This document shows, piece after piece, positions 27,128 to 48,973 of a DNA stretch of 64,000 nucleotides; position 1 is the stretch's first letter, and every line of letters begins with the position of its first letter. Source of the DNA: an uncultured Acidimicrobiales bacterium (GTDB lineage: Bacteria > Actinomycetota > Acidimicrobiia > Acidimicrobiales > SHLQ01); contig CAKZVC010000005.1 in the NCBI GenBank assembly GCA_937922235.1, positions 1-64,000 on the forward strand. Reading direction: 5' to 3'. Under the pieces are notes generated by a model, which was not told the DNA's origin, made no database searches, and saw only the letters and a list, made by a program, of their open reading frames with translations. Both the position numbers and the translations under genes were made by a program.

Positions 27128-28311
27128 CCGCCAGCCACGGTTTCAACGAACGCCAGGTTGCCATCAGCAACCTCAAGAACCCGATAGCTGCGCGCCACGG
27201 GTAGTTGGATTCCCTGACCGACCGCGATCTCGCCGCTCAGAACATCGATTGTTGAACCGCGAGTTGCATCGGCGATGCGACGAGATCCAACCGAATTCGA
27301 TCGGGTAACGGAGGTGGCCAACGCTGCCAGGGTGTCGGCCGCGACGACATCGACGGCTTCCGCCTCTTCGATACTGTCGAGGAGGTTGGTCACTTCCGCG
27401 ACCGGGTCGTCCCCGTGCACGCTCGAAGGCGAGAAGAGGAAGATGTCGGTCAGCTGAGGGTCCCATCGTTGGGGTTCGCCAAACCACGGAACGAGGATTG
27501 GCTGCTCATTGCCGGCAGAGCGCAATGCCGCAACCACATCACCGAGCGCTGGTGCCAGCGCACAGACGACGATTGCGTCGACGCTGGCAAGCCCCTCGCC
27601 CAGTGACGCGACGAGAGTTTCAGGGTCATCAACAAGCCCCACGAACGAGCCGTCGACCGACACATCGATGGCCTTGGGCGGGGCCGAGGCGAACTCTGCT
27701 ATGTCAGTACAGGTCTGATCGACATCGGGGATCAGATTGGAAGACAACACCGCGAGCGAGGTGAGGTCCTGGGTATCGGCCCAGTTCGCCATGGCGGCAG
27801 GAGCATCGTCCAAGCTGGCCAGATCGATGAAGAGTCGGCTCGAGACGTCGAGCTCGGGCTTCGGGATGGCCACACATCCGGTTACCGCCAGGAGCTGCTC
27901 GTCGATGGCCGCGTCAACAACGGTCGGCATGCTCAGGTTGTCACAGGAGGTGGCGATCACGGTGACGCCGCGGTTGACGAGCTCGCGAACCGCAGCGGGT
28001 GCGTCATCGAGGTCGGAGATTGTCACCGTATCGATGAGCACCTCGACAGGTTGGGATGCGCTGACTGCCTCAGCGCTCGCTGCGAGGACATCGACCAATC
28101 GGGCATCGCGTGCAGCGGTTGGTGACGCCGTGTTGAGGACGAGGCCGACGTTGATCGCATCGATGCCAACGTCAGACTCAGCGTCAGCTGCGGCAACCGT
28201 GATCGGCGGGGCTGTCTGCGAATCCACCCCTGATGTACAGCTCGTTGCTACAAGCGCCACCGCGAGAATCGCAGCATGGAATCCAGCGGTGTTCCGGGGG
28301 ATCGTTAGCAC
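27124..28311 (-). CDS. Lipoprotein, periplasmic-binding-protein-like
   Basis: 395 residues from GTG. The signal peptide has a hydrophobic core (A-A-I-L-A-V-A-L-V) and lipobox A-T-S-C at about residue 25. The mature protein alternates strands and helices in the manner of type I periplasmic binding proteins (branched-chain amino acid receptor fold): I-N-V-G-L-V-L-N-T-A-S near residue 52 opens the first lobe, G-V-T-V-I-A-T-S-C is the second-strand motif, and D-A-I-V-V-C-A-L-A-P marks the second lobe. Ligand unknown and no permease is adjacent. The GTG overlaps the end of the upstream gene by 7 bases. Confidence 0.72.
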   Translation of the reverse strand: MLTIPRNTAGFHAAILAVALVATSCTSGVDSQTAPPITVAAADAESDVGIDAINVGLVLNTASPTAARDARLVDVLAASAEAVSASQPVEVLIDTVTISDLDDAPAAVRELVNRGVTVIATSCDNLSMPTVVDAAIDEQLLAVTGCVAIPKPELDVSSRLFIDLASLDDAPAAMANWADTQDLTSLAVLSSNLIPDVDQTCTDIAEFASAPPKAIDVSVDGSFVGLVDDPETLVASLGEGLASVDAIVVCALAPALGDVVAALRSAGNEQPILVPWFGEPQRWDPQLTDIFLFSPSSVHGDDPVAEVTNLLDSIEEAEAVDVVAADTLAALATSVTRSNSVGSRRIADATRGSTIDVLSGEIAVGQGIQLPVARSYRVLEVADGNLAFVETVAGG

Positions 28312-43149: not shown

Positions 43150-44541
43150 CTAGTGGTCGTGGTTGTCGTGTGGCTGGTCGGCGCTTGCGTTGGCGTCGGC
43201 GAGATCCTCGATCTGCTTGATGCGCACCTTGGTGATTTGGCGTCCATCGAGTGACTCGACCGTGACGTCGTAGGGCCCGTGGCGCAGCGTCGTGCCGACT
43301 TCGGGGACAGCGCCATGGTCGGCAAGAACCAGGCCGGCAATCGTCACGACATCGTTGTTGTCGAACGCTGCATTGCCGAGGTGCTCACGAAGATCGCTCA
43401 ATGGCGTCTCGCCATCAACCGACATCGAGCCGTCGTCATGAGTGACAACTTCCTCAAGCTGCTCATCTTCCATGACCTCAGCAATGACGTCATCGAGCGA
43501 AACAAGCCCGATCGTGGCTCCGAATTCGTCGATCACGAGTGCCGCGTGCGTGCCTGCCTGCTTGAAACGATCGAGCAGATCTTCAGCAGAGGTACTTGCG
43601 GCAACTGCCGGGACTTCGCGGGCGATGTCGGAGACAGACGTGAACGTGTTGCTGTGGGCGACACGAATGAAGTCCTTCACGTGCAACAGACCCACGACGT
43701 GGTCGAGGTCGCCGTCGATGACTGGATATCGGCTGCGCGGAGACTCCACGAGCAGCCTCTCGATGTCATCGGCAGACGCCGACTTGTCGATAGCGAGGAT
43801 GTGGCTGCGAGACACCATCATCTCTTCGGCCGGGTGTTCGCTGAGCTCGAAGATGTTTCGGATCAAGTCACGCTGCAAACCACCGAGCTCGCCGCTTTCG
43901 GCCGATTCGTCGGTGACGATAGTGAGCTCGTCACTCGTGTGCAGCGACATGGCCTTATCTGGTTCGGGAATCCGCAGCATCCGCATGAGGGCAAATGCGA
44001 TCGAGTTCAACACCGCAACCATGGGTTTGAACAGCGCCGAGAACGCCCGCATGAGCGGGTTGAGCTTGACGCTGACCGCCTCGGGAGACTGCAGGGCAAG
44101 CGCTTTCGGGATCATCTCGCCAAACACCACGTGCAAGAAGGTGATGATGCTGAGCGCAATGATGAAGCCAAGCGTGTGCGAGAACGTGTCGGGCACGCCG
44201 AGATCCTCGAGCGGGCTGTAGAACCACTTTGCGATCGCTGGCTCGCCGTACATACCAAGCCCGATCGAGGCCAACGTGATGCCAAGCTGAGCTACGGCGA
44301 TGTAACTGTCCTTGCCGGCATGGCGGGTGAAGACATCGAGGAGCCAGCGCGCAGCACTGCTTCCGCCATCGGCCATCCGTTCGAGTCGGCTTGCTCGGGC
44401 ACCGACGAGTGCGAATTCAGCAGCGACGAACATGCCGTTGATGATGACGAGAAAGAAGATCGCAATCACGGGAAGGGCGACGGAGCCAAAACCGCCACCG
44501 CGGCTGGCCTCGGCTGCGAACAGGGAAAGTGAGAGAGTCAT
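43150..44541 (-). CDS. CNNM/HlyC-CorC family transporter, copy A
   Basis: 463 residues. The N-terminal CNNM domain (about 25-205) has four hydrophobic segments with N-G-M-F-V-A-A-E-F-A-L-V-G-A-R and G-I-T-L-A-S-I-G-L-G, then two CBS repeats (about 225-350; S-R-Y-P-V-I-D-G and A-A-L-V-I-D-E-F-G-A-T-I-G-L-V) and the CorC_HlyC C-terminal domain. The end is histidine-rich (D-Q-P-H-D-N-H-D-H). Relatives handle magnesium or other divalent cations. Its start overlaps the stop of copy B by four bases (ATGA). Confidence 0.92.
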   Translation of the reverse strand: MTLSLSLFAAEASRGGGFGSVALPVIAIFFLVIINGMFVAAEFALVGARASRLERMADGGSSAARWLLDVFTRHAGKDSYIAVAQLGITLASIGLGMYGEPAIAKWFYSPLEDLGVPDTFSHTLGFIIALSIITFLHVVFGEMIPKALALQSPEAVSVKLNPLMRAFSALFKPMVAVLNSIAFALMRMLRIPEPDKAMSLHTSDELTIVTDESAESGELGGLQRDLIRNIFELSEHPAEEMMVSRSHILAIDKSASADDIERLLVESPRSRYPVIDGDLDHVVGLLHVKDFIRVAHSNTFTSVSDIAREVPAVAASTSAEDLLDRFKQAGTHAALVIDEFGATIGLVSLDDVIAEVMEDEQLEEVVTHDDGSMSVDGETPLSDLREHLGNAAFDNNDVVTIAGLVLADHGAVPEVGTTLRHGPYDVTVESLDGRQITKVRIKQIEDLADANASADQPHDNHDH

Positions 44542-45833
44542 CGGCTTCCCTCCGGGTCGTCGAAGCTGACACGTTCGATCGCGTTCCCGTCCATCTGCTC
44601 GATCGTTACCTCGAGCTCGCCACCGGCGAGCATGATGGTTTCACCGACCTCAGGGGCACGTGAGAGCTCGTGCCAGATGAGTCCGCCGATCGTGTCGACG
44701 TCTTCGGTTGGGAGCTTCAGGCGGAATTGTTGGTTCAGCGACTCGAGCAGGACTTCGCCCTGTACCGACGCTCGTCCCTCGGAGATCACGATCGGATCAG
44801 GGTCGACATCGAACTCGTCTCGCACTTCACCAAAGACCTCTTCAATTGCATCTTCGAGGGTGACGAGGCCAGCGACGTCGCCGTACTCGTTGATCACCAG
44901 TGCTGCATGGCGGTCGGCCTCATCGAGACGACTCCACAACGCCGGGACGGTCAGCGTTTCAGCCACATCAAGGACTGGGCGGGCAATCGAGGCCACGGGG
45001 GCATTTGGGCTGCGCTTGGCCTCGACGTAGAGATCGCGTACGTGGGCGAGGCCGATGACATCGTCGTGCGACTCAGCCGACCACACCGGGAACCGGGTAA
45101 AGGGGGTGCCGACTACTTCTTCGAGGGCATCAGCGATCGTGGTCGACCCGTTCACACCAGTGAGGCGTCGCCGGGGTGTCATGATCTCGCGCACGAGACG
45201 TTGTTCGACGTTCAGGACGCCAGCAACCATGTTGCGTTCGGACGCATCGATGAGACCGCCTTGGGCGCTTTCGTCAAACAACGCAGCGAGTTCTTCTGGA
45301 GAGTGCACGTGGGCGTGACTGTGTTCGGTGTTGAGCCCGACAGCGCGCATCAACGCGAACGCCGAGCCGTTGAACACCGCGACGAGCGGGCGAAAGAGCA
45401 TCTGGCTGATCTGCATAGGGCGCAGCGTGGCGATCGCAAGCTTCTCGGGGTAACGAAGCGCTGCGGTCTTCGGCAGAAGCTCGCCGAGGATCACCTGTAG
45501 CGCCGTAATGATGATCAGGGTTACTGCAATCGCCGCTGCTCGGGCTCCCGAACCAAACCAGTTCTCGAAGACCGGGGTAAGGCGATCTTGGCCTAGGAAA
45601 CCAGCGATCAGACTGCTCAACGTGATGCCCACCTGGCATGCGGCGACGTAGTTGTCGAGCTTCACCGGGTCGCGCACGGTCTCGAGCAGCGTGTTTGCTG
45701 CCTTGTTGCCATCTTGCGCAATCGCTTGGATTCGGGACTTTCGGGCCCCGACGGTCGCAAACTCAGCGGCGACGTACAGCGCGTTGAGCATGAGCATCAC
45801 CGTGATGGCGATGATCGTGATGATGTGTGTCAC
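44538..45833 (-). CDS. CNNM/HlyC-CorC family transporter, copy B
   Basis: 431 residues, same build as copy A: CNNM domain with N-A-L-Y-V-A-A-E-F-A-T-V-G-A-R near residue 17 and C-Q-V-G-I-T-L-S-S-L near 65, two CBS repeats (with R-F-P-V-W and A-A-L-V-I-N-E-Y-G-D-V-A-G-L-V), and a C-terminal CorC_HlyC domain. Two adjacent CNNM genes, translated with overlap, are common and may form a heterodimer. The GTG start overlaps the stop of the CMD/AhpD-like gene (GTGA). Confidence 0.92.
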   Translation of the reverse strand: MTHIITIIAITVMLMLNALYVAAEFATVGARKSRIQAIAQDGNKAANTLLETVRDPVKLDNYVAACQVGITLSSLIAGFLGQDRLTPVFENWFGSGARAAAIAVTLIIITALQVILGELLPKTAALRYPEKLAIATLRPMQISQMLFRPLVAVFNGSAFALMRAVGLNTEHSHAHVHSPEELAALFDESAQGGLIDASERNMVAGVLNVEQRLVREIMTPRRRLTGVNGSTTIADALEEVVGTPFTRFPVWSAESHDDVIGLAHVRDLYVEAKRSPNAPVASIARPVLDVAETLTVPALWSRLDEADRHAALVINEYGDVAGLVTLEDAIEEVFGEVRDEFDVDPDPIVISEGRASVQGEVLLESLNQQFRLKLPTEDVDTIGGLIWHELSRAPEVGETIMLAGGELEVTIEQMDGNAIERVSFDDPEGSR

Positions 45834-46309
45834 GTGGACTCCTCGCCGAGCAATTGCTTTGCAGCATTGCCAGCTCGATTGTTCAAGTTAGCTTGCCCGC
45901 AGATGAGTACTAGTTCGGCCAATTCGTCCTCGGAATACAGGGATCGGAGCCGGGAATTCAGTTCTGGTGATAGCGCGTGCGTGGGCCCGCACATCGCATC
46001 GGCCAAGTCGAGTGCTGCGATCTCGGCCTCGTCAAACACGTCGCCCCACGAGTCAGGAGACTTCAACGCATCGAGCTGTGCGTCGGTAACACCGCGTCGC
46101 CTCGCCGAGGCAACATGTGAGGTCAGTCAAGTGGGACATTCGTTGACGATTGAGGTCCGGAGAAAAACCAGCTCTTTGCGAGCGGGCGACACCGCACCTT
46201 CATCGGACCACACTGCTTCTCCGAACGCTTTGTACGGGTCGGTTGCCCCCTCCACTTTGGACAGGGTGTAGCCCAGCGGAGCACCAGACAATTTCAATCG
46301 AATAGCCAT
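45830..46309 (-). CDS. CMD/AhpD-like redox protein with in-frame UGA, candidate selenoprotein
   Basis: The frame runs from ATG at 46309 to TGA at 45832-45830 (159 residues) and is broken only by a TGA at 46129-46127. Read through, the site is N-E-C58-P-T-[UGA 61]-L-T-S-H65, which is the C-x2-C-x3-H redox motif of carboxymuconolactone decarboxylase/AhpD proteins with the second cysteine replaced. Upstream K-E-L-V-F-L-R-T-S and downstream R-R-R-G-V-T-D-A-Q-L-D-A-L fit the family on both sides, so neither half looks decayed. A hairpin of SECIS type follows the UGA. The alternatives are a nonsense mutation or a sequencing error. The stop overlaps the GTG of CNNM copy B. The role would be peroxide or thiol redox chemistry in the cytoplasm. 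Confidence 0.8.
46096..46129 (-). promoter_or_regulatory. Candidate bacterial SECIS element with its UGA codon
   Basis: On the mRNA the UGA (46129-46127) is followed by 12 nt, then a stem GUUGCCUC (46114-46107), a loop GGC (46106-46104) and the arm GAGGCGAC (46103-46096): eight pairs including one G-U. The loop begins 20 nt after the UGA and its first two bases are G, both within the published range for bacterial selenocysteine insertion elements. Confidence 0.72.
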
Positions 46310-46436
46310 CCCGACAGTATGTCTCACGAGCGGTACCTGACTTGGTGATCCAAACACCCGGTTTTGCGGACGTGCGGTACCGAGCACGTATTCGCTACGG
46401 TGACCATTCGCCCGTCAATCGAATACGACCGGAGCC

Positions 46437-47861
46437 ATGCCACCCTCATCTTCGCCAATCGAACTCGTTGCTGACTACGTGATTGCTGGAAGTGGTGCCA
46501 TTGGGATGGCCTTCGCCGACATCCTCGTCACTGACTCCGACGCCACGATCATCATCATCGATCAGTACGACAAGCCGGGTGGTCATTGGAACGTGGCGTA
46601 CCCGTTCGTCAAGCTGCATCAGCCAGCCTCGTTCTATGGCGTGAGCTCGGCCGAGCTCAGTACGGGCGAGTTCGAACAGGGCGGCCTCAACGACGGCCTC
46701 GCCGAGATGTCGAGTGGCCCGGCGGTCAGCGCGTACTACGACGACGTGATGCGCCATCAGTTCTTGCCAACGGGCCGGGTGCAGTACTTTCCGCTGCACA
46801 CCTACACCGGCGATGGGAACTTCGTCAGCCACGTGACCGGGCAGACCTATCACGCCACCGCCACGAAGAAGACCGTCGACGCGACGCACCTGAAGACCAG
46901 CGTCCCGGCAACCCACACTCCGAACTTCACCGTCGCCGACGGCGTGCGGTTCATGGCTCTCAACAACCTCCCCACAATCACCGATGCGCCTGACGGGTTC
47001 GTGGTGATCGGAGCGGGAAAGACAGGCGTTGATGCGTGCCTGTGGCTACTCGACCACGATGTCGACCCCGAGGCGATCACCTGGATTGTGTCTCGCGAGG
47101 CGTGGCTACTCGATCGTAAGAACACCCAAATGAGCGAACCGTTTTTCTTCGACACGCTCGGCACCCAGGCCGCAATGATGGAGAGCATTGCCGAGGCCAC
47201 CGACAAGGCCGACATGTTCGAACGGCTTGAAGCATGCGGATACTTCTGCCGCGTCGACGAGTCGGTCACCCCCGAGATGTTCCATGGTGCAACAGTCTCC
47301 CGCGCCGAGATCGACGCCCTTCGGACCATCACGAACGTCGTACGAATGGGCCACGTCACGTCGATCACACCCGACGAAATCCAGCTCGTCGGGGGCACCA
47401 TTGCGACGACTCCAAACACCATCCACGTCGACTGCTCAGCCCGAGCAATTGTGAACACCGATATCAAGCCGGTCTTCGATGGCGACCTCATCACACCCCA
47501 GATGGTGCGGCCCTATCAACCGGTCTTTAGCGCTGCGGTCATTGCATACGTTGAGTTGAACTACGACACCGACGAAGAGCGCAACGCGCTGTGCGGCGTC
47601 GTTCCGCTGCCAAACACGACCGACGACTTCATCACGTTCACGCTTGCGGCGTTGATGAACCAGTACGCATGGTCGCAAGACCGCACCCTCCGCAAGTGGA
47701 TTGCGAAGAACCGCCTCGACGGAGCGAGCAAACTGCTCGCCACGATCGGGGCTGACGATGCGGAGAAGAAGGCCATCACCGACCGCATCAAGGCCGCTGC
47801 CCCGCTGGCAGCGGCGAAACTGTTCGAATTCCAAGCACTGCTCGATGCCGAGGAGGCATAG
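46437..47861 (+). CDS. FAD/NAD(P)-dependent oxidoreductase (flavin monooxygenase-like)
   Basis: 474 residues. The FAD-binding motif is V-I-A-G-S-G-A-I-G-M-A near residue 15, with an acidic strand end (I-I-I-I-D-Q-Y). G-G-H-W-N near 48 recalls flavin-containing monooxygenases. The NADP-binding motif is V-V-I-G-A-G-K-T-G-V-D-A near 189. The C-terminal part has no clear family mark. The DUF2855 gene starts 2 bases after its stop, so both proteins probably act together. Substrate unknown. Confidence 0.8.
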   Translation: MPPSSSPIELVADYVIAGSGAIGMAFADILVTDSDATIIIIDQYDKPGGHWNVAYPFVKLHQPASFYGVSSAELSTGEFEQGGLNDGLAEMSSGPAVSAYYDDVMRHQFLPTGRVQYFPLHTYTGDGNFVSHVTGQTYHATATKKTVDATHLKTSVPATHTPNFTVADGVRFMALNNLPTITDAPDGFVVIGAGKTGVDACLWLLDHDVDPEAITWIVSREAWLLDRKNTQMSEPFFFDTLGTQAAMMESIAEATDKADMFERLEACGYFCRVDESVTPEMFHGATVSRAEIDALRTITNVVRMGHVTSITPDEIQLVGGTIATTPNTIHVDCSARAIVNTDIKPVFDGDLITPQMVRPYQPVFSAAVIAYVELNYDTDEERNALCGVVPLPNTTDDFITFTLAALMNQYAWSQDRTLRKWIAKNRLDGASKLLATIGADDAEKKAITDRIKAAAPLAAAKLFEFQALLDAEEA

Positions 47862-47863
47862 CC

Positions 47864-48973
47864 ATGACCGATTCATCCGTCCGCGAGTTCCAGGTCGAAC
47901 GCCGCGATCTCACCAACTTTCGAGTGGTCGAACGCCCTTCAACTCCTCTCGCCGATGGCGAGATCCGACTGGGTGTCGACGCGTTCGCCTTTACGGCGAA
48001 CAACATCACCTACGGGGCCGCTGGCGACTTTCTTGGTTACTGGCAGTTCTTCCCAGCCGCAGACAACGCCGACAACACGTGGGGCATTCTTCCTGTGTGG
48101 GGTTTTGCCGACGTGGTGGAGTCGACGGTCGACAGCGTTCCTGTAGGCGATCGCCTCTACGGCTACTTTCCCCCAGCGACGTCGGTCGTCATGGTCGCAA
48201 CTGAGGTGTCGAACTCGAAGCTGATCGATGGCTCGGCTCATCGCCAGAAGCTTCCGCCGCTCTACAACCGCTACCAGCGAGTTTCCAACCAGGAGGGGTA
48301 CGACAAGACGCACGACGACGTCACATCGCTCCTTGCCCCGCTCCACCTCACGTCCTTCTGCCTCGTCGACCAGCTCGAACAGAATGGGTTCTACGGAGCA
48401 ACGCAGGTCGTCGTCGCCAGCGCGTCGTCAAAGACCAGTCTGGGAACGGCATTTGGCCTCAGCGAGCACGCCGACTCGCCTCGGATCATCGGTCTGACGT
48501 CAGAACGCAACCGTGCCTTTGTCGAGGGCGTCGGCCTCTACGACCACGTGGTCACCTACGACACGATCGCCGACACCCTCGCCGCTGAAGCGACCGTCGT
48601 GATCGACATGGCTGGCAACCCAGCGGTGACGAGTTCGCTTGCCAACCACCTTGGCGATGCTCTCGCTCGCTACATCGCCGTGGGCATCACGCATTGGGAC
48701 GAACTTGCTGGCAGCACCGAGCATCCGCGTCCGCAGATCGAGGTCGAACAGTTTTTTGCGCCTGGCTACATCGTCAAACGCATCACCACCATGGATATGG
48801 GCGAATTCGATCGAACTTCGCGCAGCTTCGTGCAACGGGCAGCACTCGCGACCAGCCAGTGGATGACCGTGCAACACGAAGATGGACTCGACGGATTGGC
48901 AGGCGTGTACGGCGCTGTCGTCGCTGGCGAATTTGCACCCTCGGCGGGGCTCATCATTCAACTTGCCGAGTAG
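47864..48973 (+). CDS. DUF2855 family protein
   Basis: 369 residues of a family of unknown function that looks like a distant medium-chain reductase: L-A-D-G-E-I-R-L-G-V-D-A-F-A-F-T-A-N-N-I-T-Y-G near residue 29, Y-G-Y-F-P-P near 101, and a Rossmann-like A-T-Q-V-V-V-A-S-A-S-S-K-T-S near 183. The metal and catalytic residues of zinc dehydrogenases are not seen. It is tightly linked to the flavoprotein gene. Function not known. Confidence 0.8.
   Translation: MTDSSVREFQVERRDLTNFRVVERPSTPLADGEIRLGVDAFAFTANNITYGAAGDFLGYWQFFPAADNADNTWGILPVWGFADVVESTVDSVPVGDRLYGYFPPATSVVMVATEVSNSKLIDGSAHRQKLPPLYNRYQRVSNQEGYDKTHDDVTSLLAPLHLTSFCLVDQLEQNGFYGATQVVVASASSKTSLGTAFGLSEHADSPRIIGLTSERNRAFVEGVGLYDHVVTYDTIADTLAAEATVVIDMAGNPAVTSSLANHLGDALARYIAVGITHWDELAGSTEHPRPQIEVEQFFAPGYIVKRITTMDMGEFDRTSRSFVQRAALATSQWMTVQHEDGLDGLAGVYGAVVAGEFAPSAGLIIQLAE

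What the first reader, a model, noticed from the sequence alone, without database searches (positions are those of the whole stretch)
45830..46309. Candidate selenoprotein: CMD/AhpD-like protein with UGA at the second redox cysteine
Seen: one frame over 160 codons interrupted only by TGA at 46129-46127. Read through, the site is C-P-T-[UGA]-L-T-S-H, matching the family motif C-x2-C-x3-H position for position, and conserved segments continue on both sides. A stem of eight pairs with a GGC loop begins 13 nt after the UGA (loop 20 nt after). Known: bacterial SECIS elements sit just downstream of UGA with a short loop starting with G; Sec-containing AhpD/CMD-like proteins are, as far as I recall, known from marine metagenomes. 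Inference: this is C-x2-U. Gene callers will split or truncate it into two apparent pseudogene pieces.
Basis: partly seen in the sequence, partly recalled or inferred. Interest (0 to 1): 0.93.

Follow-up and report, generated by a model that had tools for sequence, protein, structure and literature searches.

The report
Selenocysteine redox protein across a stop
A gene that looks broken by a stop codon almost certainly makes an intact small redox protein, because the bacterium reads that one stop codon as the rare amino acid selenocysteine; proteins of this general kind are already known.

Summary
The finding holds. Window 46309-45830 (-) encodes a 159-residue CMD/AhpD-like protein whose only internal stop is TGA 46129-46127, giving C58-P-T-U61-x3-H65. 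The genome carries selA and selB (adjacent), an NDH-selD fusion and two tRNA-Sec genes. Of 15 relatives found by exact-peptide scan, 15 carry TGA at this codon; a profile search of 395 class genomes added one more, and no Cys protein above 70.3 bits. The 8-bp hairpin after the UGA shows compensatory change at two pairs, and synonymous variation in the codons spanning it falls to 0.25 of expectation, lowest of 148 windows. A held-out relative matches the hairpin model at 61.6 bits. Pseudogene, sequencing error and genome-wide recoding are therefore rejected. It is a new member of a known kind (CxxU CMD/AhpD-like selenoproteins, described since 2005) that reaches no NCBIfam equivalog's cut-off. 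The enzymatic role is inferred from the motif. A second AhpD-like selenoprotein sits elsewhere in the genome; four of four related genomes examined have Sec formate dehydrogenase. No structure model could be obtained.

The parts
45830..46309 (-). CMD/AhpD-like selenoprotein gene, 159 residues plus stop TGA; Sec at codon 61
46127..46129 (-). in-frame UGA read as selenocysteine (U61 of C58-x2-U61-x3-H65)
   Evidence: TGA in 17 of 17 distinct sequences incl. window; Cys in distant homologues
46096..46114 (-). SECIS hairpin: 8-bp stem (46114-46107 with 46103-46096), loop GGC 46106-46104
44538..45833 (-). downstream CNNM/CorC-type gene whose GTG start overlaps the selenoprotein's terminal TGA; this neighbour is shared only with L019 and L020 in the same place

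Best explanation
The gene encodes a complete selenoprotein of the CMD/AhpD-like family. SelB with Sec-tRNA-Sec, guided by the hairpin just 3' of codon 61, inserts selenocysteine at the UGA (shown by comparative evidence, not biochemically). Sec takes the place of the second cysteine of the C-x2-C-x3-H redox motif; together with C58, E46 and H65 it most likely acts as the attacking selenol that reduces a peroxide or a disulfide and is then resolved by C58 (inferred from the motif of AhpD-type proteins; substrate and electron donor unknown). The confidence below is for Sec insertion; for the peroxide/disulfide reductase role it is about 0.6.
For: Sec machinery in the same genome: SelB 570 aa with SelB winged-helix domain PF09107, the one of 11 matches over its cut-off, and SelA adjacent; NDH-SelD fusion; two tRNA-Sec genes with anticodon TCA, the two of 14 Rfam matches over the gathering score. 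TGA at this codon in 15 of 15 relatives 58-77% identical, although one of the six search peptides had Cys there, which would have favoured Cys relatives. Profile search of 395 class genomes: 4 strong matches (251-281 bits), each with one TGA, each in a genome with selA; the other 4 matches score 62-70 bits. Hairpin: 126 of 128 cells paired, two-sided changes at two pairs, 0 of 500 shuffles reach the covariation score. Synonymous variation 151 observed against 596 expected in codons 65-72, ratio 0.25, against about 0.8-1.1 away from the hairpin. Held-out L037 matches the model at E 5.8e-13. E46, C58, U61, H65 invariant in 16 of 16. A second selenoprotein in the genome and Sec-FdhA in 4 of 4 related genomes examined indicate that the lineage decodes UGA as Sec.
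Against: No protein-level or RNA-level evidence. The single hairpin is not unusually stable. Rfam on the region gave nothing up to E 5. Among the covariation controls, the number of further pair types does not exceed shuffles (497 of 500 reach it), and 9 of 500 reach the number of two-sided pairs. The loop here is GGC (CGGGU in two relatives), unlike the GGUCU loop of the other selenoprotein genes read in these genomes, so one must assume that the same SelB accepts both. The enzymatic step rests on motif analogy; no structure model could be obtained and no conserved partner gene was found. The other sampled member of the genus lacks the gene.
Confidence: 0.93

Rival explanations
1. Pseudogene: a Cys codon mutated to TGA, or a sequencing/assembly error.
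For: One stop in an otherwise open frame is what a recent nonsense mutation or a base error looks like.
Against: The same TGA in 15 of 15 relatives and one further genome, the frame continuing with conserved segments after the stop in each, and strongly suppressed synonymous change right after it.
Confidence: 0.01
2. TGA is a sense codon (e.g. Trp or Gly) throughout this genome, or the UGA is read through without selenium.
For: The frame is open across the TGA.
Against: The same gene ends in TGA; 11 of 50 mechanically chosen, largely non-overlapping window ORFs of 200 aa or more end in TGA; tRNA-Sec, SelA, SelB, SelD present; distant homologues have Cys, not Trp or Gly, at the site; the hairpin is conserved.
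Confidence: 0.01
3. UGA is a conserved regulatory stop: in low selenium the ribosome terminates to give a 60-residue peptide, and the readthrough product is only a minor form.
For: Partial termination is usual at Sec UGA codons (PMC4513850, start of abstract in the listing: recoding efficiency in vivo 30-40%).
Against: The invariant residues on both sides of the UGA and in the C-terminal segment (G138-R145, G147, N148) show that the full protein is under selection.
Confidence: 0.04
4. Genuine selenoprotein, but not a peroxidase: a selenol-based thiol/disulfide carrier or a CMD-type enzyme acting on a small metabolite.
For: No conserved partner gene in the flanks compared; CMD-fold proteins have several activities (recalled).
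Against: C-x2-C-x3-H with upstream Glu is the redox signature of AhpD-type members (recalled; same spacing in solved relatives 2ijc and 2o4d).
Confidence: 0.35

Closest known systems
CMD domain-containing / CMD-like selenoprotein (Pfam PF02627, CxxU; Sargasso Sea 2005; 'AhpD-like 2' in GOS 2008)
   Same: Same Pfam domain, same CxxU motif, bacterial SECIS just after UGA (passages)
   Different: No sequences of that family could be fetched, so whether this branch is part of it or separate was not tested; the 2026 review holds no word beginning 'acidimicrobi'
NF053654 GroundWater_YciW, YciW-related (seleno)protein
   Same: Best-scoring NCBIfam equivalog (43.3 bits, residues 38-142)
   Different: Far under its cut-off of 310 bits; not a member
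TIGR01926 peroxidase-related enzyme, including its CxxU selenoproteins
   Same: CMD domain with CxxU; the second selenoprotein of this genome is one (140.5 bits, cut-off 81.8)
   Different: Window protein scores 28.1 against cut-off 81.8; 30% identity over 40 residues to that second protein; different SECIS loop
Solved CMD/AhpD-like proteins 2ijc, 2o4d (PA0269)
   Same: Same E-x11-C-x2-C-x3-H spacing
   Different: Cys where this protein has Sec; E about 1e-8, with the alignment starting only at residue 38 or 35 of this protein

Membership tests
Bacterial selenoprotein | In-frame UGA at a position occupied by Cys in homologues | tested here: met
   13 distant homologue matches in 11 loci align Cys at codon 61 (TGA read as Cys there); the best match in each of the 11 loci has no internal stop; for 2 secondary matches the codon was not checked
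Bacterial selenoprotein | SECIS hairpin just 3' of UGA with small apical loop containing G | tested here: met
   loop GGC in 14 and CGGGU in 2 of 16
Bacterial selenoprotein | SelA, SelB, SelD and tRNA-Sec in the genome | tested here: met
Bacterial selenoprotein | Selenium in the purified protein | not testable with these tools
   needs 75Se labelling or mass spectrometry
CMD/AhpD-like family (PF02627, TIGR00778 domain) | Match over curated cut-off | tested here: met
   PF02627 50.8 bits, cut-off 23; TIGR00778 45.2, cut-off 27.8
CMD/AhpD-like family (PF02627, TIGR00778 domain) | All-helical CMD fold | not tested
   Structure prediction queue full at each of 13 attempts
TIGR01926 peroxidase-related | Score over cut-off 81.8 | tested here: not met
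   28.1 bits
NF053654 YciW-related (seleno)protein | Score over cut-off 310 | tested here: not met
   43.3 bits
NF041238 AhpD_rel_CFYUT | Score over cut-off 175 | tested here: not met
   26.6 bits
CMD-like selenoprotein of the Sargasso Sea list | Sequence clustering with its members (e.g. MBW1767730.1) | not testable with these tools

The most novel reading that the evidence does not exclude
A distinct CMD subfamily that exists only in Sec form (nothing between 70.3 and 251.4 bits in the 395 class and 396 phylum genomes sampled), patchily spread over at least four taxonomic families of one class, and read through a SECIS whose GGC loop differs from the GGUCU loop of the other selenoprotein genes read in the same lineage, so that one SelB must accept two loop classes.
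Probability: 0.4. Interest if true: 0.5.

Novelty: new member of a known kind. Interest (0 to 1): 0.4.

Why it matters
It adds a well-supported selenoprotein subfamily that reaches no curated NCBIfam equivalog, in a class of actinobacteria known here mostly from metagenome-assembled genomes in which Sec decoding looks common: selA in 259 of 395 genomes (256 over the cut-off), relatives of a second AhpD-like Sec protein in 93 of 395, of which 91 have a match with TGA, Sec-FdhA in 4 of 4 genomes examined. Selenoprotein genes are widely misannotated (PMC1088965, passage). The alignment and hairpin model would let annotators recover the family. The loop difference between SECIS elements of one lineage is a testable question on SelB recognition.

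Tried and rejected
Rfam on 45700-46500: no match up to E 5. Viral contigs: 31 pattern matches, none a relative. Second hairpin hit in the window at 27263-27294 (+), E 0.033: antisense to a 395-aa ORF, the nearest preceding TGA 9 bases before the stem, the hit not covering the UGA part of the model; taken as chance. Neighbourhood (18 loci and the window, flanks up to 4 kb, several cut short by contig ends, 25 largest clusters listed): after setting aside shadow ORFs and the halves of the gene itself, no cluster covers more than 4 of 19 sources; the CNNM gene pair directly downstream is shared with L019 and L020, with a partial member of that cluster elsewhere in L023; no operon partner is claimed. 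Idea that Sec here is kept without Sec-FdhA: dropped, since 4 of 4 related genomes have Sec-FdhA and the window genome's own strong Fdh-like fragment ends at a contig edge before the active site. My first pair count used a structure string off by one column and is void; one search replaces it. In one search the automatic reading of the FdhA UGA was right for L082 and L083 only; one search gives all four.

Full report
Observation. The minus-strand frame 46309-45830 has 160 codons, ends in TGA and has one internal stop, TGA at 46129-46127. Read through, the site is K-E-L-V-F-L-R-T-S-I-V-N-E-C-P-T-U-L-T-S-H. Pfam CMD matches residues 26-85, across the UGA, at E 1.7e-13; the open N-terminal piece alone matches nothing at E 0.001.

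Machinery. The window's genome (4.4 Mb, 118 contigs, 87.5% complete) has SelA (384 bits) directly upstream of SelB (281.6 bits, with a SelB winged-helix domain) on contig C64, an NDH-SelD fusion (266.9 bits) on the same contig, and two tRNA-Sec genes with TCA anticodon on C41, 93 of 94 bases identical, facing opposite ways about 2 kb apart. SelD carries Cys in C-G-G-C-G-A-K and its 735-aa frame has no internal stop.

Relatives. A scan of the GTDB species genomes with six exact peptides gave 52 stretches, of which 15 encode relatives, 58-77% identical in their best segment. By title 10 are Acidimicrobiales, 1 Acidimicrobiaceae, 2 Actinomycetes, 1 Actinomycetota and 1 unplaced; the window's own class is not named by any tool and is inferred from these to be Acidimicrobiia. 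All 15 have TGA at the same codon. The scan finds only close relatives; one of its six peptides held Cys at this site. So 17 of 17 distinct sequences carry TGA. The four strong genomes lie in four taxonomic families by handle. In 396 genomes of the phylum (a sample that overlaps the class sample) only the window matched strongly; seven others score 60-70 bits without stops. Aligned to the family, 13 distant matches from these 11 loci have Cys at codons 58 and 61; the His four residues on is present in 11 of 13 and the upstream Glu in 12 of 13 (that script read TGA as Cys, so for the two secondary matches in L074 and L076 the codon itself was not checked). The only other sampled member of the genus, G368, lacks a match at this threshold although it has selA.

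SECIS. Over 16 sequences the 8-bp stem pairs in 126 of 128 cells, with two-sided changes at two pairs (U-A to C-G in three sequences, C-G to U-A in one) and a third pair as U-G (8), C-G (5) and U-A (3). Of 500 shuffles, 0 reach the percentage paired or the covariation score, 1 the number of two-sided cells, 9 the number of two-sided pairs, 497 the number of further pair types. Slid registers pair 24-74% of cells with covariation score 0.121 or less against 0.210; one of six slid registers shows one two-sided pair. One two-sided change couples Val to Ala (GTC to GCC) with a synonymous Arg change (AGA to AGG), the other a synonymous Val change with Arg to Lys: the pattern fits selection on RNA. 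Codon pairs that encode the same residue differ 151 times against 596 expected in codons 65-72 (the stem lies in codons 66-72), ratio 0.25; nine-codon windows away from it run from 0.82 to 1.12; it ranks 1 of 148 eight-codon windows. Expectation used codon use within the family, not a phylogenetic model. A covariance model built from the 16 finds its own window copy at E 5.7e-12, the next match in the genome at E 0.033 (150 of 5800 first-look candidates scored). In a search of 12 loci it finds the held-out L037 at E 5.8e-13; in L038-L041 (4 of the 11 loci with distant Cys homologues), the genome's stop-free CMD locus L042 and six second-type selenoprotein loci the best matches are 7.5 and 6.8 bits (E 3.6 and 5.2) or absent. 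The single hairpin is not unusually stable (z -0.73).

Other selenoproteins as controls. The genome has three CMD matches over the cut-off; besides this gene, C23:63671-64249 has an in-frame TGA, in N-H-C-H-Y-U-V-V-H-H, and is a TIGR01926 protein (140.5 bits, cut-off 81.8). Matches to it at E 1e-30 occur in 93 of 395 class genomes; of 105 matches, two have no stop, one has two TGA and 102 have one. The position of the TGA was read in 20 of these loci (the genome's own included): 20 of 20 have it after C-H-Y, followed by a GGUCU loop sequence between complementary arms, though free folding of the own copy prefers another structure. Formate dehydrogenase alpha of four related genomes (three with the window family, and G368) scores 628-638 bits, a little under the family's cut-off of 666, with one TGA each, in S-C-N-R-T-U-H-A-P-S-V, also followed by GGUCU. 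In the window's own genome none of the 10 Fdh-like matches has a stop, but one strong fragment ends at a contig edge.

How it works. Shown by comparison: Sec insertion at codon 61. Inferred: U61 is the reactive selenol, C58 the resolving thiol, E46 and H65 the proton relay, as in AhpD (recalled for M. tuberculosis AhpD; identical spacing in PDB 2ijc and 2o4d). Substrate, donor and partner are unknown; gene context gives no lead. In the window the terminal TGA overlaps the GTG start of a CNNM-type gene, which suggests coupled translation there.

Literature. CxxU CMD-domain and AhpD-like selenoproteins were reported from the Sargasso Sea in 2005 and GOS in 2008 (PMC1088965, PMC2398784: passages) and are listed in two reviews (PMC9312934, PMC13188914: passages). 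PMC1794560 (passages) reports 12 selenoprotein families in Actinobacteria. PMC5330540 (passages) reports bacterial genomes with two tRNA-Sec genes. Searches of the held library for 'selenoprotein' with 'Acidimicrobi' and for 'selenocysteine' with 'Ilumatobacter' gave two papers and one, none about this by title and start of abstract; nor does any title listed (20 of 75 listed) and 56 name this family in this group. No NCBIfam equivalog reaches its cut-off. I therefore file it as a new member of a known kind.

Noticed in passing
own genome contig C23:63671-64249 (-), locus L044: Second AhpD-like selenoprotein (TIGR01926 type, CHYU-VVHH) followed by a GGUCU-loop sequence; matches in 93 of 395 class genomes, 103 of 105 matches with at least one TGA.
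   Followed up: partly
own genome contig C41:73-164 (+) and C41:2063-2154 (-): Two tRNA-Sec genes, 93 of 94 bases identical, in opposite orientation about 2 kb apart, with a shared stretch just 3' of each.
   Followed up: partly
own genome contig C64:55552-56442 (L010): SelD is fused to an NDH-like pyridine nucleotide-disulfide oxidoreductase (735 aa) and carries Cys rather than Sec.
   Followed up: no
window 27263-27294 (+): Hairpin resembling this SECIS, antisense to a 395-aa ORF; probably chance.
   Followed up: partly
L081-L084: Sec-containing formate dehydrogenase alpha (CNRT-U-HAPSV) followed by GGUCU-loop sequences in four related genomes.
   Followed up: partly
window 46437-48973 (+): Two same-strand genes divergent from the selenoprotein gene: a 474-aa protein without Pfam match that by eye looks like an FAD/NAD-binding oxidoreductase, and a DUF2855 protein.
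   Followed up: no
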